In this document: positions 3,654 to 62,132 of the stretch, in pieces
Layout of the letters: every line of letters begins with the position of its first letter
How positions within the stretch are numbered: the stretch's first letter is position 1
Assembly (NCBI GenBank): GCA_951828585.1
Contig: OX639991.1
Coordinates: 4,136,001-4,200,000 of the forward strand
Direction: 5' to 3'
Source: Longimicrobiales bacterium
GTDB taxonomy: Bacteria > Gemmatimonadota > Gemmatimonadetes > Longimicrobiales > Gaopeijiaceae
Length of the DNA: 64,000 nt
Position numbers and translations under genes: made by a program
The notes under the pieces: generated by a model
The model's input: the letters and a program-made list of their open reading frames with translations, nothing else
The model's database searches: none
Told to the model about the DNA's origin: nothing

Positions 3654-3689
3654 GGCGCCCCTCCCATTCCCGCGTTCCTCATCTGGCAG

Positions 3690-3931
3690 TCCGTGGATAA
3701 AGCCGGCCGAGCACCGAGAGCGGTGAGGCGCCGGGCTGGCAAGGAGCGACGTGAGGTGAATAGCAGAGCAATTCGCCCGAGGAGCGACGCAGAGCGCCGC
3801 CGTGGAGTCGCAGAATGTATGCTATACATGACATATTGTAATGTTGTCTTTACGTCGTGAACAGGCGAAGCGAAGCGTCCAGCGCGGATGCATCGCCGCT
3901 CGAATGCCGGGGGGATTTTGTCCATGGGCTG
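3690..3931 (-). repeat. 242-bp intergenic repeat, copy A
   Basis: This stretch is about 90% identical by eye, and equal in length, to 47395-47636 (reverse orientation). Read on the minus strand it starts with CAGCCCATGGACAAAATCC, on the base after the TolC stop codon, and ends with the complement of TCCGTGGATAAAGCC shortly before the ABC ATPase gene. The two ends are imperfect inverted repeats (CCGTGGAC-AAA type). The middle holds an AT-rich segment with TTACAA and TATAGCATACAT that could act as a promoter. An open frame on the minus strand starting with ATGGACAAAATC spans the entire element without a stop. It resembles a MITE or another non-autonomous intergenic repeat; no transposase of matching ends is seen here. 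Confidence 0.85.
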
Positions 3932-5236
3932 CTAAAGTTCCCTTCCGACGATTGATTCGAGTTCGGCCTTGGCGAGCGCGTAGTCGTACCGGGCCGCCAC
4001 CAGATTGGCGTCGGCCTGGTCCAGCGCCACCTGGCTGGCGAGGAAATCGAGGATGGTACCACCGCCGGCTTCATAGCGCACCCGGTTGATTCTCAGGTCC
4101 TCCACAGCAACGTCGAAGGCCTCCTGCGCGATGGCGATCGCCTGTTCCTGGGTCTCGATGGTTCGGAGCGCGGCGTCCACTTCCTGCCGCACACCCCGAC
4201 GGGAGTCCTCTTCGGTCAGGCGGGCCACGCGCCGGCTCTCCGTCGCTTGGCTGAGGCTCTGTTCGCGGCCGAAACCGTCGAAGAGCGTGTAGCTGCCCGA
4301 TACCCGGAAACTCCAGCTGGTGTTGCCACCCGTGAACGACCGGTCCTGGTTCGCCCAGGAATAGTTGGATGTTGCCGAAAGAGACGGAAGGTACGAACTC
4401 CTGGCACTCCCCAGAGAGGACCTGGCCACGGAGGCCGCCGCCTCGGCGGCGCGGACGGCGGGCGATACCGACACGGCAAGAGCGATGATCTCCGACTCGG
4501 ACAGCGCAAGGGGCGCCGGGGACAGGTCGCCCATGTCGGCCGGAGCGACGGGACCGTCCATGCCTACCTGCCGGCCCAATGCAAAGTGCGCCGCCCGCAG
4601 CTGGTTCTCCGCCTGCAGGAGTGACTGGCGTGCATTCGCCAGCTCGAGGCGTGCACGCAGAGTATCCGAACGTGTGGCGGCAAGCCCGCTCAAGCGGGCC
4701 CTGGTGATTTCCAGACTCTCTTCCGCGCGTTGTCGGCTGGCTTCCGCCACCCTCACCAGGTCACGCTGGCGCAACGCGTTCATGTAGAGGGTGGTGGTCT
4801 GCAGCACGATAGCATAACGCTGGCTCTGCAGGCGCGCCTCCGCTTCCCGGCGGGCCGAAGCCGTACGGTCCAGCTCGTGGTACTTGCGGCCGCCCTGGAA
4901 GAACTGGTAGTTCGCGCTCATGCCCGCGCTGTACGAATCGCTGCTGCCCTCGACGATGCGCTGAGTATTCTGATCGAAGCGGCTCGAACTGTTCACCGAG
5001 GCGCCCGAACTCATGCTGACGGTGGGCAGAAATGACCCCAGAGCGCGGCGGCGACCGCTGCCGGCGTTGATCACGCTCGCCTGGGTCTGGGCCAGCTGGG
5101 GACTGTGGATCTGGGCCAGCTCGATCGAGCGCTGGAGCGACACCGTCTGCATGCCTTCCTGCGCGGCGGCTCCAGTGTCCAGAGCGGGCGCCAAGAGCAC
5201 CATGGCACACGCCATCCAAATCGACTTCTGTCTCAT
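3932..5236 (-). CDS. TolC-family outer membrane efflux protein
   Basis: Outer-membrane channel of the tripartite system. The start at 5236 (MRQKSIWMACAMVLL) is preferred over the longer frame from 5266: it gives a clean signal peptide ending near GAAAQ, lies one base after the stop of the upstream gene, and has GGGAGAG as ribosome binding site. The mature protein (about 410 residues) has two OEP repeats with long amphipathic helices (for example LDRTASARREAEARLQSQ) and ends LAKAELESIVGREL. It lies between the Spy-like gene and the ABC ATPase in one transcription unit, with the intergenic repeat starting directly after its stop codon. Confidence 0.93.
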   Translation of the reverse strand: MRQKSIWMACAMVLLAPALDTGAAAQEGMQTVSLQRSIELAQIHSPQLAQTQASVINAGSGRRRALGSFLPTVSMSSGASVNSSSRFDQNTQRIVEGSSDSYSAGMSANYQFFQGGRKYHELDRTASARREAEARLQSQRYAIVLQTTTLYMNALRQRDLVRVAEASRQRAEESLEITRARLSGLAATRSDTLRARLELANARQSLLQAENQLRAAHFALGRQVGMDGPVAPADMGDLSPAPLALSESEIIALAVSVSPAVRAAEAAASVARSSLGSARSSYLPSLSATSNYSWANQDRSFTGGNTSWSFRVSGSYTLFDGFGREQSLSQATESRRVARLTEEDSRRGVRQEVDAALRTIETQEQAIAIAQEAFDVAVEDLRINRVRYEAGGGTILDFLASQVALDQADANLVAARYDYALAKAELESIVGREL

Positions 5237-16200: not shown

Positions 16201-16551
16201 GCCGATCAGCTCCACGCCGTGCGCGGCCAGCACCCCTTGCTTGTGAAGATCCATCGCGATGTTGAGCGCTGTCTGTCCACCCATCGTGGGGAGCAGCGCG
16301 TCGGGCTTTTCCCGCTCGATCACCCGCTCGACCCACTCGGGCGTCAGCGGCTCGATGTAGGTCCGGTCGGCCAGATCCGGGTCCGTCATGATCGTCGCCG
16401 GATTGGAGTTGACCAGGACGACCCGGTACCCTTCCTCCTTGAGCGCCCGCACGGCCTGGGTGCCGGAATAGTCGAATTCGCAGGCCTGCCCGATGACGAT
16501 GGGACCCGACCCCAGGATCAGGATCGAGTCGATGTCTGTGCGTCTAGGCAA
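13300..16551 (-). CDS. carB: Carbamoyl-phosphate synthase large subunit
   Basis: 1083 residues, the normal length for CarB, which makes carbamoyl phosphate for pyrimidine and arginine synthesis with the small subunit CarA (not in the window). Two homologous ATP-grasp halves are seen, beginning [20 protein letters not shown] and [19 protein letters not shown]. The oligomerisation domain lies between them, and a C-terminal MGS-like allosteric domain contains [15 protein letters not shown]. The start is TTG at 16551. A TATACAT box and a 17-bp palindrome lie just upstream, inside a partial copy of the intergenic repeat. Confidence 0.98.
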
Positions 16552-16560
16552 GGTGGATCC

Positions 16561-16669
16561 AATGTATACTACACTTTACATTATGTAAAGCAATGATTAC
16601 ATTGTGGTGAACCGAGCGAAGCGCGGATGCACGGCCGCGCGCATGCCTGGGGGTTTTGTCCACGGGCTG
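16561..16669 (-). repeat. Intergenic repeat, partial copy C
   Basis: On the minus strand it begins with CAGCCCGTGGACAAAACC on the base after the stop codon of the MetS-like gene, as copies A and B do after their upstream genes. The match to copy A continues through the segment complementary to GAAGCG...CGCGGATGCA, then diverges at the AT-rich centre, and the second half is missing. What remains ends at the carB start region. Confidence 0.7.
16562..16593 (-). promoter_or_regulatory. Probable carB promoter and palindromic operator
   Basis: On the minus strand, TATACAT (16568-16562) is a good -10 box 11 bases before the TTG start. TTTACA (16589-16584, spacer 15) or TTGCTT (16593-16588, spacer 19) could be the -35. 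The perfect palindrome CTTTACATTATGTAAAG (16574-16590) covers the -35 region and may bind a repressor. All of this is within repeat copy C. Confidence 0.45.
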
Positions 16670-35833: not shown

Positions 35834-35963
35834 TTGTCCAATGAGAAATGATCATGAGCGGGGAGCCGGTTTCCAACGGGAAGTGAGTATCCATGTCGCA
35901 AGCCGGCGGGGCGAGTCGCAGCTCCAGTGCGAGCGGGTCCGGGGCAGAGGTATGACGTAGCCA

Positions 35964-37116
<1,153 letters not shown>

Positions 37117-37126
37117 ATGAGCGGGG

Positions 37127-38413
37127 GTGCGAGCAGATCATGGGAGCATGATCGTGACACTCAGCACCGAACGGATTCGCACCGTCGACGACATCCGCGC
37201 CTTCCTCGGCGGGAGCGAGGGGGCGGACATCGCCCCCCACGACCGTGAGGCGGCGTACGCGTTCATTGAGCGGACGCTGGTCCGGTTCCGCTACCACTTC
37301 GGCCTGTCGAGGGCCGGGAAGGGCCTGGTCAGGAAGTACGTCGCCAAGGTCACCGGCTACTCGGACGCCCAGCTGACGCGGCTGATCAGGCAGCAGCGCC
37401 GCACGGGCCGCATCCGCGACCACCGGCTGCGCCCTCCTTTGCGTCCCTTCGCCACGGTCTACACGACCGCCGACGCGATACTGCTGGCGGAGGTGGACGA
37501 GGCCTTCGGCCAGCTCTCGGGACCGGCGACGAAGAGGATCCTGTGGCGCATGTACCATGTCTTCGGCGACAAGCGCTTCGAGCGCCTGGCGGGGATTTCG
37601 AACGGCCACATCTACAACCTGCGTGCCCGCCGGGCGTACCGGCGTGCCCGGACCACGTACCGCGCGACGCGGGGCTCGTCGTCGCCGATCGGGCAGCGGC
37701 GCAGGCCCCGGCCGGAGGGCCGCCCGGGCTTCGTGCGGGTCGACACCGTGCACAGCGGCGACCGCGACGGCGAGAAGGGGGCCTACGTGATCAACATGGT
37801 CGACGAAGTGACGCAGTACCAACAACTTGCGTCGGTTCGGCGGATCACCGAGCAGTTCATGGTCCCCGTGCTCGAGGAGCTCGTCGGCGCGTTCCCCTTC
37901 CGCGTCCTGGCCTTCCATTCCGACAACGGGTCGGAGTACATCAACCACCGGGTCGCGGAGATGCTGAACAAGCTGCACGTCGAAGAGTTCACGAAGTCGC
38001 GGCCCCGGCGCTCGAACGACAACGCGCTGGTCGAGTCCAAGAACGGCAACGTCGTACGCCGGTGGCTGGGGCGCAGCCACATCCCGGAGTCTCTGGCACC
38101 GGATGCCGACGCGTTCCTGCGCGACCATCTCTCGCCCTTTCTCAACCATCACCGCACCTGCCTCTTCGCGGTCGAGGTCGAGGATGCGAACGGGCACCGC
38201 CGCAGGAAGTACCCCCAGGAGCTGGTCATGACCCCGTACGAAAAGCTCGGATCGCTGCCCGGGGCCGACGGCTTTCTGAAGCCCGGCATCACCTTCGAGC
38301 AGATTGACGCCGCGGCGCACGCCGTGGACAGCCTCAAGGCGGGCCAGGAGGTCCAGCGGGCCCGCAAGGCGCTCTTCCACCTCATCGCCAAGGCGCTGAA
38401 CCCCGCAGCATGA
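37127..38413 (+). CDS. DDE integrase-type transposase (ISNCY/IS481-like)
   Basis: 428 residues from a GTG at 37127; ATG at 37148 (MIVTLSTER) is an equally good start. N-terminal helical DNA-binding part (LVRKYVAKVTGYSDAQLTRL, LAGISNGHIYNLRARRAYRR), then an rve-type core: Asp in GFVRVDTVHSGDRDG, Asp in LAFHSDNGSEYINH, Glu in NDNALVESKNGNVVRRWLG. The C-terminal tail MTPYEKLGSLPGADGFLKPG matches a remnant at 50656-50854. It belongs to the element 35834-38584; the nested IS110 ends 11 bp upstream of its start, so expression may be altered. Confidence 0.88.
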   Translation: MRADHGSMIVTLSTERIRTVDDIRAFLGGSEGADIAPHDREAAYAFIERTLVRFRYHFGLSRAGKGLVRKYVAKVTGYSDAQLTRLIRQQRRTGRIRDHRLRPPLRPFATVYTTADAILLAEVDEAFGQLSGPATKRILWRMYHVFGDKRFERLAGISNGHIYNLRARRAYRRARTTYRATRGSSSPIGQRRRPRPEGRPGFVRVDTVHSGDRDGEKGAYVINMVDEVTQYQQLASVRRITEQFMVPVLEELVGAFPFRVLAFHSDNGSEYINHRVAEMLNKLHVEEFTKSRPRRSNDNALVESKNGNVVRRWLGRSHIPESLAPDADAFLRDHLSPFLNHHRTCLFAVEVEDANGHRRRKYPQELVMTPYEKLGSLPGADGFLKPGITFEQIDAAAHAVDSLKAGQEVQRARKALFHLIAKALNPAA

Positions 38414-38794: not shown

Positions 38795-38934
38795 CGCAAG
38801 GGTACGATTCCGATGCGGTTTCGATGCGGTGTACGCTTTCGGTGCGGCGCTTCATTCATCTCTCGCCGCGCCTTGCCGGCCCTACGCCTCGCCGCCCTTG
38901 GTGCTCGAGCTATCCGCGTACCACCGCGGCCCTC
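38795..38934 (-). repeat. Diverged partial copy of the intergenic repeat (copy D)
   Basis: Downstream of glyS. The segment reading GAGCACCAAGGGCGGCGAGG and then GGCCGGCAAGGCGCGGCGAG on the minus strand aligns with the distal half of copy A (GAGCACCGAGAGCGGTGAGG, GCTGGCAAGGAGCGACG). It begins right after the glyS stop, so again it abuts a stop codon, but in the opposite orientation to copies A-C. Identity is clearly lower. Confidence 0.5.
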
Positions 38935-46813: not shown

Positions 46814-47394
46814 ACGGCAACCTCTTCACCCGCGTCGTCGACCGCATCACCGGCCGCCTCGGCCGCTTCATCTCCTGGCTGACTCTGGCCATGGTCCTGA
46901 TCGGCGCCTACAACGCCATCGCGCGCTATCTGGGGCGGTTCATCGGGGTCAACCTGAGTTCCAACCTCTACCTGGAGCTCCAGTGGTACCTCTTCTCGCT
47001 GATCTTCCTGCTGGGGGCCGGGTACGCGCTCAAGGAGAACGCGCATGTGCGGGTGGACGTGCTGTACGGGCGGCTGCGTCCGAAAGCGCGCGCGAAGATC
47101 GACGTGATCGGTTCGGTGCTCATGCTGATCCCCTTCTGCATCTTCGTGCTGTGGGTCTCGTGGCCGTCGATCCTCAACTCGTGGCTGGTGCGGGAAGGGT
47201 CGCCCGACCCCGGGGGGCTGCCCCGCTATCCGCTCAAGGCGGTGATCATCGTGGCGTTCGTGCTTCTGCTCGTGCAGGGCGTTTCGCAGTTCATCAAGGA
47301 CCTCCAGGTGCTGCGCGGACGGGACGGGGACGACGACGACGTCCGGGACGAAGACACACGTTCCGGACCCCACGCCGGCGGGGTCGGCATTTAA
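46810..47394 (+). CDS. dctQ: TRAP transporter small permease (DctQ)
   Basis: 194 residues, four membrane helices (for example MVLIGAYNAIARYLG, LQWYLFSLIFLLGAGYAL). The DctQ signature ELQWYLFSLIFLLGAGYALK and NAHVRVDVLYGRL are clear. Partner of DctM and the DctP binding protein for sodium-driven uptake of an organic acid or related solute. Overlaps gpmI by 4 bp; repeat copy B begins on the base after its stop. Confidence 0.94.
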   Translation: MNGNLFTRVVDRITGRLGRFISWLTLAMVLIGAYNAIARYLGRFIGVNLSSNLYLELQWYLFSLIFLLGAGYALKENAHVRVDVLYGRLRPKARAKIDVIGSVLMLIPFCIFVLWVSWPSILNSWLVREGSPDPGGLPRYPLKAVIIVAFVLLLVQGVSQFIKDLQVLRGRDGDDDDVRDEDTRSGPHAGGVGI

Positions 47395-47636
47395 CAGCCC
47401 GTGGACAAAATCCCCCCGGCATTCGAGCGGCGATGCATCCGCGCTGGACGCTTCGCTTCACCTGTTCAAGACGTAAAGACAACATTACAATATGTCATGT
47501 ATAGCATACATTCTGCGACTCCAAGGCGGCGCTCTGCGGTGCTCCTCGGGCGAGTAGCGCTGCTATCCCCCTCTCGTCGCGCCTTGCCAGCCCGGCGCCT
47601 CACCGCTCTCGGCGCTCGGGCGGCTTCATCCACGGA
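47395..47636 (+). repeat. 242-bp intergenic repeat, copy B
   Basis: Full-length match to copy A (3690-3931, opposite strand). Begins CAGCCCGTGGACAAAATCC on the base after the dctQ stop and ends CATCCACGGA eight bases before dctM. Orientation relative to the host operon is the same as copy A. An open frame GTGGACAAAATC... crosses it and stops at TAG directly before the dctM ATG. Confidence 0.88.
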
Positions 47637-47643
47637 CCGCTAG

Positions 47644-49046: not shown

Positions 49047-49281
49047 GACACGCACCCAATTGTCCTTTGAGCGGGAGATGTTGCGCGACGCGCGACGCCG
49101 CGCCGCCGACCGGGGGATTTCCCTGGCGGAGTACGTGCGGCGGCTCGTTGCGGCGGACCTCGAAGGGGACGAAACTCCGGCGGATCCCAGCGCCATCTTC
49201 AACCTCGGGCGGTCGCAGGTCTCGCACATCGCCCGGCAAAGGGATTCCATGGTCGCGCGGGCGTACCGGGGAGGGCAGTAG
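49045..49281 (+). CDS. Ribbon-helix-helix antitoxin (VapB-like)
   Basis: 78 residues from MTRTQLSFEREMLRDA (ATG at 49042 also possible). RHH pattern: a short N-terminal strand TRTQLSF, helix EREMLRDARRRAADRG and ISLAEYVRRLVAADL. The C-terminal half would bind the toxin. The partner PIN-domain gene begins 68 bp downstream. The sequence after its stop, TCCGTGGATGAATCCCC, resembles the end of the intergenic repeat. Confidence 0.82.
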   Translation: MTRTQLSFEREMLRDARRRAADRGISLAEYVRRLVAADLEGDETPADPSAIFNLGRSQVSHIARQRDSMVARAYRGGQ

Positions 49282-49349
49282 TCCGTGGATGAATCCCCGC
49301 GAGCACAAGGACCGGCGAGGCGGCGGGCGTCCAGGGGCCGCCCGGGACA

Positions 49350-50854: not shown

Positions 50855-51023
50855 CCCGCCTCGCGCCGACCGCTGCCCGCCCGGAGACCCTCCCGCAAAC
50901 CGGCCTCTACCAACTCGCCGGTTGCCCCTCTCCCCTGTTCGAAGAGATAATGAAACACCCTCAACCACTACCTGCCCCTTCCCCGGGCCTCGCCCCTCAC
51001 CCTTCAGAGCTCCCCGAGTTCAG

Positions 51024-52178
<1,155 letters not shown>

Positions 52179-52273
52179 TGGCTACTTCATACCTCTGCCC
52201 CGGACCCGCTCGCACTGGAGCCGCGACTCGCCCCGCCTGCTTGCGACATGGATACTCATCTCCGCGTTGGAAA

Positions 52274-58904: not shown

Positions 58905-59259
58905 GGTGGGGGTCTCCGACACGAAGCTGCCGCCGGAGCGAGCGGCGAATGAGCGAGATCATCTTCGAGGTGATTGAGGACGAAGTCGATGGCGGTTACT
59001 CAGCCAGTGCGATCGGATACGGGATCCACACGCAGGGCGATTCGGTGGAGGAAATCCGCCGGAACGTCCGGTGCTGATTCCGGCCCATGCCGATCAGTGA
59101 TTCCATTTCATGCCGATCACCGATTCCAGAGTATGCCGATCAGTGATTCCAGAGCATGCCGATCACCTTGGAGTGAGCGAGTAGGAGCGCTGGAGAACCT
59201 GCTGTAGCGACACCCTCTTCCATCCTCGCCAGAGGTTCCTTGAGACGAGGAGAAAGAGG

Positions 59260-60819
59260 GTGTCACAGAAGAGGTTGTCCATGCGGAAGATTCGAGAAGT
59301 GCTGCGTCTGAAGTACGAGGCCGGGCGCAGCCACCGGGAGATCGCCAGATCGCTCGGCATCGCCAACAGCACGGTGAGCGATTACGTGCGGCGGGCAAGC
59401 GCCGGGGGCTTCTCCTGGCCGTTGCCGGAGGGGCTGGACGACGCCGCGCTTGAGGCGGCGCTGTTCCCGCCCCTGCCACCGTCGCGGGTTCCCCGGCCGG
59501 AGCCGAACTGGGAGCAGGTTCACCGGGAGCTTCAACGCCACAAGGGCGTGACGCTGCAGCTGTTGTGGCTGGAGTACCGGGCGGCGCATCCGAACGGCTA
59601 CGGGTACAGCTGGTTCTGCGAGCGCTACAGGGCGTGGCGGGGACGGATCGACGTGGTCATGCGGCAGGTGTACCGGGCGGGCGAAAAGGCGTTCGTGGAC
59701 TACGCGGGCCCGAAGTTCGAAGTCGTGGACCGGAAGACCGGCGAGGCGCGGGACGTCATGGTCTTCGTCGGTGTCCTCGGCGCGTCGAACTACACCTTCG
59801 TGGACGTGACCCGGAGCCGGTCCCTGCCGGACTGGACGATGTCGCATGTCCGGATGTTCGAATTTTGGGGCGGGGTGCCCGAACTCGTGATCCCGGACAA
59901 CGAGAAGGCCGCGGTCCACAAGGCCAGCCGCTACGAGCCGGACTTGAACCCGACGTACCAGGAACTGGCCACCCACTACGGAACCGCAGTGCTGCCGGCG
60001 CGGCCCCGGGCACCTCGGGACAAAGCCAAGGCGGAAACCGCAGTCCAACACGTCGAGCGCTGGGTCATGGCGCCGCTGCGCAACCATACGTTCTTCTCGC
60101 TCGGCGAACTCCGCGACGCCATCGCGCCGCTGCTGGCCGCGCTGAACGAGCGGCCGTTCGACAAGACCGATGGGAGCCGCCGCAGCTGGTTCGAGGATCT
60201 CGACCGGCCGGCGCTCAAGCCGCTTCCGGCCGAGCGCTACGAATACGCGGAGTGGCGCAAGGCGCGGGTCAACATCGACTACCACATCCAGGTCGAGCAC
60301 GCGCTCTACAGCGTCCCCCACCCGCTGGGCCGCTGCGAGGTCGACGTTCGGCTCACGGCCCAGACCGTCGAGATCTTCCACAAGTACCGCCGGGTGGCCG
60401 CGCACCTACGGGTCCACAGGAAGGGCGGATACGCGACCGAACCGTCGCACATGCCCGCCTCGCACCGCGCCCATGCGGGTTGGACGCCGTCCCGACTGAT
60501 CGCCTGGGGACAGAGGACCGGATCGCACACGGCCGCGTTCGTCGAACAACTCCTCGACAGCCGGCCCCACCCCGAACAGGGCTACCGCAGCTGCCTCGGG
60601 CTCAAGGCACTGCTGCGGGCCTACGGCGCCGAGCGCCTGGAGGCCGCCTGCCGCCACGCGCTGGACATCGGCACGCTGAGCTACAAGTCCGTCAAGTCCA
60701 TCCTCGCGACCGGCCTCGACCAGGCCGACGACCAGCAGTACACGCTCTCCCTCCCCGGCCACCACGCCAACATCCGCGGGCCCGGGTACTACACTCCCCA
60801 GAATGGAAAGGAGTCCTGA
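59260..60819 (+). CDS. istA: IS21 transposase IstA
   Basis: 519 residues from a GTG with GAGAAAGAGG upstream; ATG at 59281 is an alternative. N-terminal helix-turn-helix (GRSHREIARSLGIANSTVSD) and DDE core: Asp in AFVDYAGPKFEVVD, Asp in LVIPDNEKAAVHK, Glu in KAKAETAVQHVERW. Normal length. All catalytic residues present. Confidence 0.95.
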   Translation: MSQKRLSMRKIREVLRLKYEAGRSHREIARSLGIANSTVSDYVRRASAGGFSWPLPEGLDDAALEAALFPPLPPSRVPRPEPNWEQVHRELQRHKGVTLQLLWLEYRAAHPNGYGYSWFCERYRAWRGRIDVVMRQVYRAGEKAFVDYAGPKFEVVDRKTGEARDVMVFVGVLGASNYTFVDVTRSRSLPDWTMSHVRMFEFWGGVPELVIPDNEKAAVHKASRYEPDLNPTYQELATHYGTAVLPARPRAPRDKAKAETAVQHVERWVMAPLRNHTFFSLGELRDAIAPLLAALNERPFDKTDGSRRSWFEDLDRPALKPLPAERYEYAEWRKARVNIDYHIQVEHALYSVPHPLGRCEVDVRLTAQTVEIFHKYRRVAAHLRVHRKGGYATEPSHMPASHRAHAGWTPSRLIAWGQRTGSHTAAFVEQLLDSRPHPEQGYRSCLGLKALLRAYGAERLEAACRHALDIGTLSYKSVKSILATGLDQADDQQYTLSLPGHHANIRGPGYYTPQNGKES

Positions 60820-60824
60820 CCATC

Positions 60825-61589
60825 ATGCTTCGCCAACCCACCCTCGACCTGCTTCACGAACTCCGGCTCTCCGGCATGGCCGAGGCCTTCCAGGAACAGG
60901 CCGCCATGCCCGACATCGCCGAACTGTCCTTCGAGGACCGCCTCTCCCTGCTCCTCGAACGCGAGAAGACCGAACGGAAGCAGCGCCGCTACCAGCGACT
61001 GAAAGGCCACGCCAAGCTCCACCTCGACGCGACCATCGAAGACATCAACTTCAAGGCCCCTCGCGGACTGGACAAATCCCTCGTGCTCCGCCTCGCCTCC
61101 GGGCAGTGGATCCGGGACGGCCAAACCGTGCTCGTCAGCGGTGCCACGGGCTCGGGAAAATCCTACTTGGCGTGCGCGCTGGGCCACCAGGCCTGCCGCG
61201 CCGGAATCTCGACGCGCTACTACCGCGTCTCCCGCCTGCTTGACGAACTCACCCTCGCCCGCGGCGACGGGTCGTATCCCAAGGTCATCCAGAGGCTCGC
61301 CCGGACGTGGCTCCTCGTCCTCGACGACTGGGGGCTCGCTTCGCTCTCGGGACAGGGACGGCACGACCTCCTCGAGGTCCTCGACGACCGCTACGCCCGC
61401 CGCGGCACGCTGCTGGCCAGCCAGGTCCCCGTCGAGCACTGGCACGAGGTCGTCGGCGATCCCACCTTCGGCGACGCCATCCTCGACAGACTGCTCAACA
61501 ACGCGCACCGCATCGCCCTCAAGGGCGGATCGATGAGAAGGCTCTACGACTCGACGAAGGAAGCCGACGCCGTCCCCGGCGACGCCTGA
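60825..61589 (+). CDS. istB: IS21 helper ATPase IstB
   Basis: 254 residues, six bases after istA, with AAGGAG upstream. AAA+ ATPase: Walker A SGATGSGKSYLACALG, Walker B LVLDDWGLASL, and arginine-finger segment TLLASQVPVEHWHEV. It selects the target and activates IstA. Confidence 0.95.
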   Translation: MLRQPTLDLLHELRLSGMAEAFQEQAAMPDIAELSFEDRLSLLLEREKTERKQRRYQRLKGHAKLHLDATIEDINFKAPRGLDKSLVLRLASGQWIRDGQTVLVSGATGSGKSYLACALGHQACRAGISTRYYRVSRLLDELTLARGDGSYPKVIQRLARTWLLVLDDWGLASLSGQGRHDLLEVLDDRYARRGTLLASQVPVEHWHEVVGDPTFGDAILDRLLNNAHRIALKGGSMRRLYDSTKEADAVPGDA

Positions 61590-62132
61590 TCCGCCGAGAG
61601 ACCGGGCTCAAGCATGCCTCTGGAAGCGCGTCTCTCCCTGCGATCGGGGGTGAAAAGACGGAAAGACAGCTCTGAGCGGGCCGTGCGGCCGTCCGGGCGT
61701 TCCGTTGCGGCCGGCCCGGATCCGTCCGCACCCCCCAATCCGGGACAAATGGCCCGGTTCCCTCGCAAAACCGCTCTCCAGAGCGCCGTAGAGGCCGTCC
61801 GAAGACCTTCGCCCTACCTACACCCCTCCGGAAAAACCGGCCCGCCGGCCGTCCCAGCAACACACTGCCAACGGTCCCTTCACACTCGACGACTACCCCC
61901 TCCAACCCCTAAACTTCAAACCCGTAACCCGACCCCAGCGCCCCTATGGACCTCCGCTCTCCTCCAAGGTGATCGGCATGCCCCGGAATCGGTGATCGGC
62001 ATGGCGGAATCGGTGATCGGCATCGGCGGAATACGGATCCGGGAAGCTGTTGACTGCTACTTCGATGAGACGATGGAGCGGCCGGGGATCATCCGCTTGC
62101 AATTTGTTCGAGATGAAGTTCTTGTCCCGTGA

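What the first reader, a model, noticed from the sequence alone, without database searches (positions are those of the whole stretch)
3690..3931. A 242-bp repeat anchored to stop codons of envelope genes
Copies A (3690-3931) and B (47395-47636) have exactly the same length, are about 90% identical by eye, and start on the base after the stop codon of tolC and dctQ. Partial copy C starts in the same way after the MetS-like gene, with CAGCCCGTGGACAAAA. All three have the same orientation relative to transcription of the upstream gene. A short relative of the other end (TCCGTGGATGAATCC) follows the VapB-like stop. The ends are imperfect inverted repeats. A MITE that recognises stop-codon context, or a post-transcriptional element between operon genes, would explain this.
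Basis: seen in the sequence. Interest (0 to 1): 0.72.

Follow-up and report, generated by a model that had tools for sequence, protein, structure and literature searches.

The report
Non-coding transposon that lands at CTAG
The repeat is a short, gene-less "hitch-hiker" transposon present in dozens of copies in one genus of Gemmatimonadota; it inserts at the rare four-letter site CTAG, which in these genomes often overlaps a stop codon, and it is itself the landing site of a second transposon whose predicted guide RNA matches its end.

Summary
A and B are two of about 34 full-length copies (81-93% identical to B) in a 4.47-Mb Gemmatimonadota genome; all 22 other genomes searched in the genus carry the family. 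The element is a ~245-bp MITE: imperfect inverted repeats CAGYCCGTGGAYARARYC, no gene, and a 4-bp target duplication, consensus CTAG. Both window sites are empty in relatives, which read plain CTAG there. A likely autonomous partner was found in five relatives: a ~1.5-kb IS1182/IS5-like DDE element with matching ends (up to 17/20) and CTAG on both sides; the host keeps only a decayed transposase fragment. Stop-codon anchoring follows partly from the target: CTAG is 17-fold depleted and 27% of its non-genic occurrences are gene ends. Copies flanked by CTAG are anchored in 56%, so some excess remains. Further: (1) copies lie co-oriented with flanking genes 72:16; (2) the strand antisense to those genes keeps its pairing better (G-U rather than A-C); (3) six copies are interrupted at one base by an IS1111-type IS110 element whose predicted guide RNA matches the MITE end plus its CTAG. 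Points 1 and 2 are not explained. Verdict: a new MITE family, a known kind, with an instructive RNA-guided parasite.

The parts
47395..47639 (+). Copy B, full-length MITE (CAG...CCG), between dctQ and dctM
   Evidence: dctQ and dctM by Pfam
47391..47394 (+). left copy of the target duplication of B, now TTAA (contains the dctQ stop)
   Evidence: relatives read CTAG at the empty site
47640..47643 (+). right copy of the target duplication of B, CTAG
3687..3931 (-). Copy A, full-length MITE, between tolC (OEP) and an ABC-transporter ATPase gene
3932..3935 (-). 5'-side copy of the target duplication of A, TTAG (contains the tolC stop)
   Evidence: relative L094 reads CTAG at the empty site
3683..3686 (-). 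3'-side copy of the target duplication of A, CCAG
16548..16669 (-). Copy C, internally deleted derivative, between a small ORF (stop TAG) and carB; followed by CTAG 16544-16547
49280..49328 (-). decayed 3'-end fragment after the stop of the VapB-like ORF, upstream of a PIN-domain gene
38854..38916 (+). decayed fragment of the 3' half

Best explanation
The repeat is a miniature inverted-repeat transposable element (MITE), about 245 bp, non-coding, moved in trans by an IS1182/IS5-like DDE transposase that inserts at CTAG and duplicates 4 bp. Shown: the copies, the ends, the duplication, the empty sites, and full-length ISs with matching ends and CTAG flanks in related genomes. Inferred: that this IS moves the MITE. 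Stop-codon anchoring arises because CTAG is strongly depleted, many of its remaining non-genic occurrences are the last base of a gene plus its TAG stop, and insertion there leaves the gene intact since the duplication restores the stop; insertions inside genes are lost. The orientation bias is most likely selection on the transcript, because the antisense strand would give a markedly more stable hairpin if it lay in the sense of an operon (inferred, not shown). In addition, an IS1111-type element of the IS110 family carries a predicted guide RNA that matches the MITE end plus its CTAG duplication and inserts there.
For: About 34 full copies and many derivatives in one genome, genus-wide. Empty sites at both window loci read CTAG in relatives. 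Target duplication: 18 of 65 pairs of non-CTAG flanks identical, shuffles mean 3.7, maximum 10; no preference beyond 4 bp. Five ISs of ~1.5 kb with CTAG on both sides and ends 13-17 of 20 identical to those of the MITE; transposase DUF772 + DDE_Tnp_1; near-full-length open frame in G001, G016, G005, only fragments in G000. CTAG depletion 11 observed against 193 expected; 31 of 115 non-genic CTAGs are gene ends. Orientation 72:16, p=1e-9. Antisense strand folds better in all 26 copies tested (z-scores). IS110-family insertions at one base in six copies, guide loop matching the target, and a relative in which target and loop both differ and still match.
Against: MITE and IS share only the terminal ~20 bp; no movement was observed. 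NCBIfam scores of the transposase are below the curated cut-offs for IS1182 and IS5. Stop anchoring (34 of 61 copies with a CTAG flank) exceeds the 27% that the target alone predicts. At many stop-anchored copies the left flank is GTAG, ATAG or TTAG and the right one CTAG, so the exact length of the duplication there is not proven. The cause of the orientation bias is not shown.
Confidence: 0.88

Rival explanations
1. The element is (also) a domesticated post-transcriptional element of operons: a structured RNA after the stop codon that protects or uncouples messages and is kept by selection in one orientation.
For: Co-orientation with flanking genes 72:16; compensatory changes in the stem above shuffles, 15 pairs against 10 at most; orthologous copies 80-98% identical while fourfold sites of the upstream gene are 61-87% identical.
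Against: The better-folding strand is antisense to the genes. Both window sites are empty in most relatives, half of the copies are not at stops, many copies are decayed, there is no Rfam match and no consensus promoter or terminator. Covariation may reflect paired evolution of transposon ends.
Confidence: 0.12
2. The orientation bias is set at insertion (for example by transcription or replication direction at the target) and not by later selection.
For: The bias is as strong in copies near the consensus (36:6) as in distant ones (36:10).
Against: CTAG is a palindrome and no asymmetric preference lies beside it; immediate strong selection would look the same.
Confidence: 0.3
3. The repeat is a REP/REPIN-type sequence spread by a RAYT (Y1) transposase.
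For: Extragenic, palindromic, in head-to-tail arrays and a target of an IS110-family element, as REPs are (PMC11187229).
Against: No Y1_Tnp match in the genome; target duplication present; a DDE partner with the same ends exists.
Confidence: 0.02

Closest known systems
Bacterial MITEs (e.g. MITEAba12, PMC6382973; MITEs of Coxiella burnetii, PMC5896051; from memory ERIC, Correia, RUP)
   Same: Short, non-coding, terminal inverted repeats, target duplication, many copies between genes, foldback structure, autonomous IS with similar ends.
   Different: Target CTAG with a 4-bp duplication; frequent placement exactly at stop codons; strong co-orientation with flanking genes; new sequence family restricted (as far as searched) almost wholly to one Gemmatimonadota genus.
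IS1182 / IS5 families of DDE insertion sequences (candidate autonomous partner)
   Same: DUF772 + DDE_Tnp_1 domains; best NCBIfam models are IS1182 and IS5.
   Different: Scores below both curated cut-offs, so the family assignment is only approximate; CTAG target recalled from memory for some IS5 members, not confirmed in the papers searched.
[quoted passage not shown] ISPa11 on REPs; ISKpn4 on attC (PMC11187229, PMC11208160)
   Same: The element inserted in six MITE copies has an IS110-family transposase, 11-bp subterminal inverted repeats, a downstream non-coding region and target-matching loops in the IS1111 order; like IS4321 it targets the end of another transposon.
   Different: The host element is a MITE, and the guide also covers the CTAG duplication beside it.
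REP / REPIN elements with RAYT transposases (PMC2817692)
   Same: Extragenic palindromes, arrays, targets of IS110-family elements.
   Different: No RAYT in the genome, target duplication present, DDE partner.

Membership tests
MITE | terminal inverted repeats, no transposase gene, length of a few hundred bp | tested here: met
   245 bp; ends CAGCCCGTGGACAAAATCC / CAGTCCGTGGATAAAGCC
MITE | target-site duplication | tested here: met
   4 bp, consensus CTAG; 18 of 65 non-CTAG pairs identical against at most 10 in shuffles; empty sites
MITE | autonomous partner with matching ends and target | tested here: met
   ~1.5-kb ISs in five relatives, ends 13-17 of 20 identical, CTAG on both sides; only fragments in the host itself
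MITE | mobilised in trans by the partner's transposase | not testable with these tools
   needs a transposition assay
IS1182 family (partner) | NCBIfam IS1182 equivalog cut-off (270 bits) | tested here: not met
   192.5 bits; IS5_4 92.6 bits against cut-off 140
IS1182 family (partner) | DUF772 + DDE_Tnp_1 domain pair | tested here: met
   PF05598 68 bits, PF01609 46.6 bits
REP/REPIN | RAYT (Y1 transposase) in the genome | tested here: not met
   no PF01797 match
IS1111 group of IS110 (the element inserted in six copies) | IS110-family DEDD transposase | tested here: met
   NF033542 320 bits, cut-off 140; PF01548 and PF02371
IS1111 group of IS110 (the element inserted in six copies) | subterminal inverted repeats and downstream non-coding region | tested here: met
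   GTGGACGCCCC at both ends; ~300 nt after the gene
IS1111 group of IS110 (the element inserted in six copies) | guide sequences match both strands of the target and change with it, top-strand complement first | tested here: met
   CTAGCAGTCC then TCCACG for the MITE end; ACTTGACGGA then CAAGTCCG in the relative L312 with another target; order as in PMC11187229
IS1111 group of IS110 (the element inserted in six copies) | guide RNA expressed and bound by the transposase | not testable with these tools
   needs co-purification; the 304-nt region as a whole does not fold better than shuffles

The most novel reading that the evidence does not exclude
The element acts in the cell as a strand-specific RNA structure. 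The strand antisense to the operon keeps its pairing (C to T tolerated, G to A not, although unpaired sites show no such bias), and the element is kept in one orientation after stop codons, so that it modulates operon messages or acts as an antisense hairpin. This would be a genus-wide, recently dispersed layer of post-transcriptional control.
Probability: 0.1. Interest if true: 0.65.

Novelty: new member of a known kind. Interest (0 to 1): 0.42.

Why it matters
It explains a striking pattern, a long repeat that starts exactly after stop codons, largely by a transposon's target preference in genomes where that target is rare elsewhere. It also offers a compact three-player system: an autonomous IS, its MITE, and an RNA-guided IS1111-type element whose predicted guide matches the MITE end plus the duplication. 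The 72:16 co-orientation with operons is an open and testable question about how small repeats coexist with transcription.

Tried and rejected
RAYT/REPIN origin: no Y1_Tnp. IS701-type DDE_5 transposase as partner: only weak overlaps. The 3.6-kb region 3018593-3022240 as an autonomous transposon: its ends are one MITE split by a 3.4-kb insertion. Known RNA family: none in Rfam at E<=1. Promoter or terminator in the element: no consensus match. Integron attC: considered because attC sites also follow stop codons and are IS1111 targets; rejected by eye because the ends lack RYYYAAC/GTTRRRY and no genes alternate with the repeats. A short chance resemblance of the AT-rich centre to loxP was noted and not pursued. 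The first version of the copy table mislocated the 3' ends and was redone. Gene calls come from my own codon-usage model, not from an annotation; the first version of that model was poor and was retrained. Paper searches for the target of IS1182 or IS5 gave nothing useful.

Full report
Observation. The two copies are as described: 93% identical over 242 bp, same orientation relative to the upstream gene, starting on the base after the stop of tolC and dctQ. Ends defined by the inverted repeats give 245 bp (3687-3931 minus; 47395-47639 plus). Copy C (about 16548-16669, minus) is an internally deleted copy after the TAG of a small ORF; the fragment after the VapB-like ORF (49280-49328) is the other end of the element and so has the opposite orientation; a fifth fragment is at 38854-38916.

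Family. The window is G000:C1:4136001-4200000 of a 4.47-Mb single-contig genome. The genome has about 34 full copies and 68 matches in all. A 171-bp form without the AT-rich centre (positions 64-135) forms head-to-tail arrays, as does the full form (three units, period 249). Minimal forms of about 56 bp consist of little more than the two ends. The end pattern occurs 304 times with up to 3 mismatches, against 33 for the reversed pattern. All 22 other genomes searched in the genus are positive; outside the genus matches are few and weak. Named records with an exact internal 29-mer are Gemmatimonadota MAGs and one Longimicrobiales chromosome, plus one MAG labelled Vicinamibacteraceae that may be a binning error. 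That several of these MAGs come from sponges is my reading of the isolate names, not a tool result.

Mobility. In relatives the dctQ-dctM junction reads ...CTCTAGATGG and the tolC junction ...GGGAACTCTAGATGAGG, without the element. In G000 these are TTAA[element]CTAG and TTAG[element]CCAG. So CTAG was duplicated and the copies have drifted. Over 126 non-redundant copies of the genus the flanks show CTAG-like 4-mers on both sides and no preference beyond them. Where neither flank is CTAG, 18 of 65 pairs are identical, against 3.7 on average and 10 at most in shuffles; identical pairs include CTGG eight times, CTAT three times, CTAA and CCAG twice. A caution: at stop-anchored copies the left flank is often GTAG, ATAG or TTAG with CTAG on the right; drift of a wobble base is the simplest reading, but a shorter duplication there is not excluded.

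Partner. Searching DDE transposases of the genus and scanning their flanks gave five elements of about 1.5 kb in G001, G005, G007, G015 and G019, each with CTAG on both sides and ends such as CAGGCCGTGGAAGAAGTGG / CAGGCCGTGGATAAAATCC, 13-17 of 20 identical to the MITE ends. The transposase (476-486 aa) has DUF772 and DDE_Tnp_1; the nearest NCBIfam models are IS1182 (192 bits, cut-off 270) and IS5 (93 bits, cut-off 140), neither met. A near-full-length, uninterrupted open frame occurs in G001, G016 and G005; G000 has only fragments around 1373839-1374210 among close relatives of this protein. That this IS moves the MITE is inference from ends and target.

Why stop codons. CTAG is strongly depleted: 11 in the window where composition predicts 193. 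In about 1 Mb of genus sequence outside the elements I found 74 CTAGs in genes, 84 between genes and 31 formed by the last base of a gene and its TAG stop. Insertion there leaves the gene intact because the duplication restores the stop. This predicts 27% anchoring; copies that keep a CTAG flank show 34 of 61 (56%, p=3e-4 by Fisher test), so the target explains part, and loss of insertions into regulatory spacers may explain the rest (inference).

Orientation. Relative to the element, both neighbours run with it in 72 copies and against it in 16 (p=1e-9); a stop abuts the 5' end in 51 copies and the 3' end in 12. The bias is as strong in copies close to the consensus (36:6) as in distant ones (36:10). 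The target offers no asymmetric signal. The strand antisense to the genes folds better in all 26 copies tested (mean -125 against -104 kcal/mol; mean z -7.4 against -5.2 in a sample of 24). In the outer stem that strand shows G-U far more often than A-C (9.3% against 0.8% of cells), compensatory changes exceed shuffles, and C-to-T changes are 2.3 times as frequent per site as G-to-A in paired columns but equal in unpaired ones. The structure was derived from the same alignment, two of the G-U pairs are fixed in the family, and paired transposon ends may evolve together, so this is suggestive only. My preferred reading is that the opposite orientation is removed because it puts the more stable hairpin into the message; setting of the orientation at insertion is the main rival.

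Conservation. Among ten pairs of orthologous copies the element is 80-98% identical, while fourfold sites of the upstream gene are 61-87% identical. This may be constraint, gene conversion or recombination; it is not resolved.

The parasite. Six full copies are interrupted at exactly TCCACG|GACTG by a ~1.4-kb element (98-100% identical to each other) with an IS110-family transposase (NF033542, 320 bits). It has perfect 11-bp subterminal repeats GTGGACGCCCC and its long non-coding region lies downstream, as in the IS1111 group (PMC11187229, PMC11208160). In that region a stem GGATC...GATCC carries CTAGCAGTCC, the complement of the top strand right of the insertion point including the MITE's CTAG, followed by TCCACG, identical to the left side; the order agrees with that reported for IS1111 seekRNAs. 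A relative with 87% identity sits in another target (ACAAGTCCG|TCAAGTCC), and its loop carries ACTTGACGGA and CAAGTCCG at the same places. So guide and target change together. The other relatives in the genome are not in MITE ends. IS4321 and IS5075, which target the ends of Tn21 transposons, are the closest precedent (cited in PMC11208160 and PMC11187229).

Verdict. A new MITE family of a known kind, with a clear target, a likely autonomous partner and an RNA-guided parasite. The orientation bias and the strand-specific pairing remain open.

Noticed in passing
L050:1592-5242 (G000:C1:3018591-3022241): A full MITE copy is split in its AT-rich centre by a 3.4-kb insertion with a few bases repeated at the junction; the insert holds lipoprotein-like ORFs and no obvious transposase.
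   Followed up: partly
window 35879-37127 and 51013-52263: Two copies, 94-95% identical and in opposite orientation, of about 1.25 kb with an IS110-family transposase (Pfam DEDD_Tnp_IS110, Transposase_20); distinct from the element that targets the MITE.
   Followed up: partly
window 59076-62004: An IS21-type element (Mu-type transposase C-terminal domain plus IstB) flanked by multiple 23-bp terminal repeats GATTCC...ATGCCGATCA in inverted orientation.
   Followed up: partly
whole window and about 1 Mb of genus sequence: CTAG is depleted about 17-fold (11 observed, 193 expected in the window), far more than composition explains; cause unknown.
   Followed up: no
window 16544-16551: The called start codon TTG of carB lies inside the end of MITE copy C, so the insertion may have supplied or shifted the start.
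   Followed up: no
L069:1243 and L054:1496 (G000:C1:3043243 and 3059996): Two genes with EF-Tu-like C-termini each carry the element right after the same stop codon; one element is deleted to ~25 bp, which suggests gene conversion between tuf copies.
   Followed up: no
L372 (JAAXGQ010000014.1): A MAG labelled Vicinamibacteraceae holds an exact internal MITE sequence: horizontal transfer or a misbinned contig.
   Followed up: no
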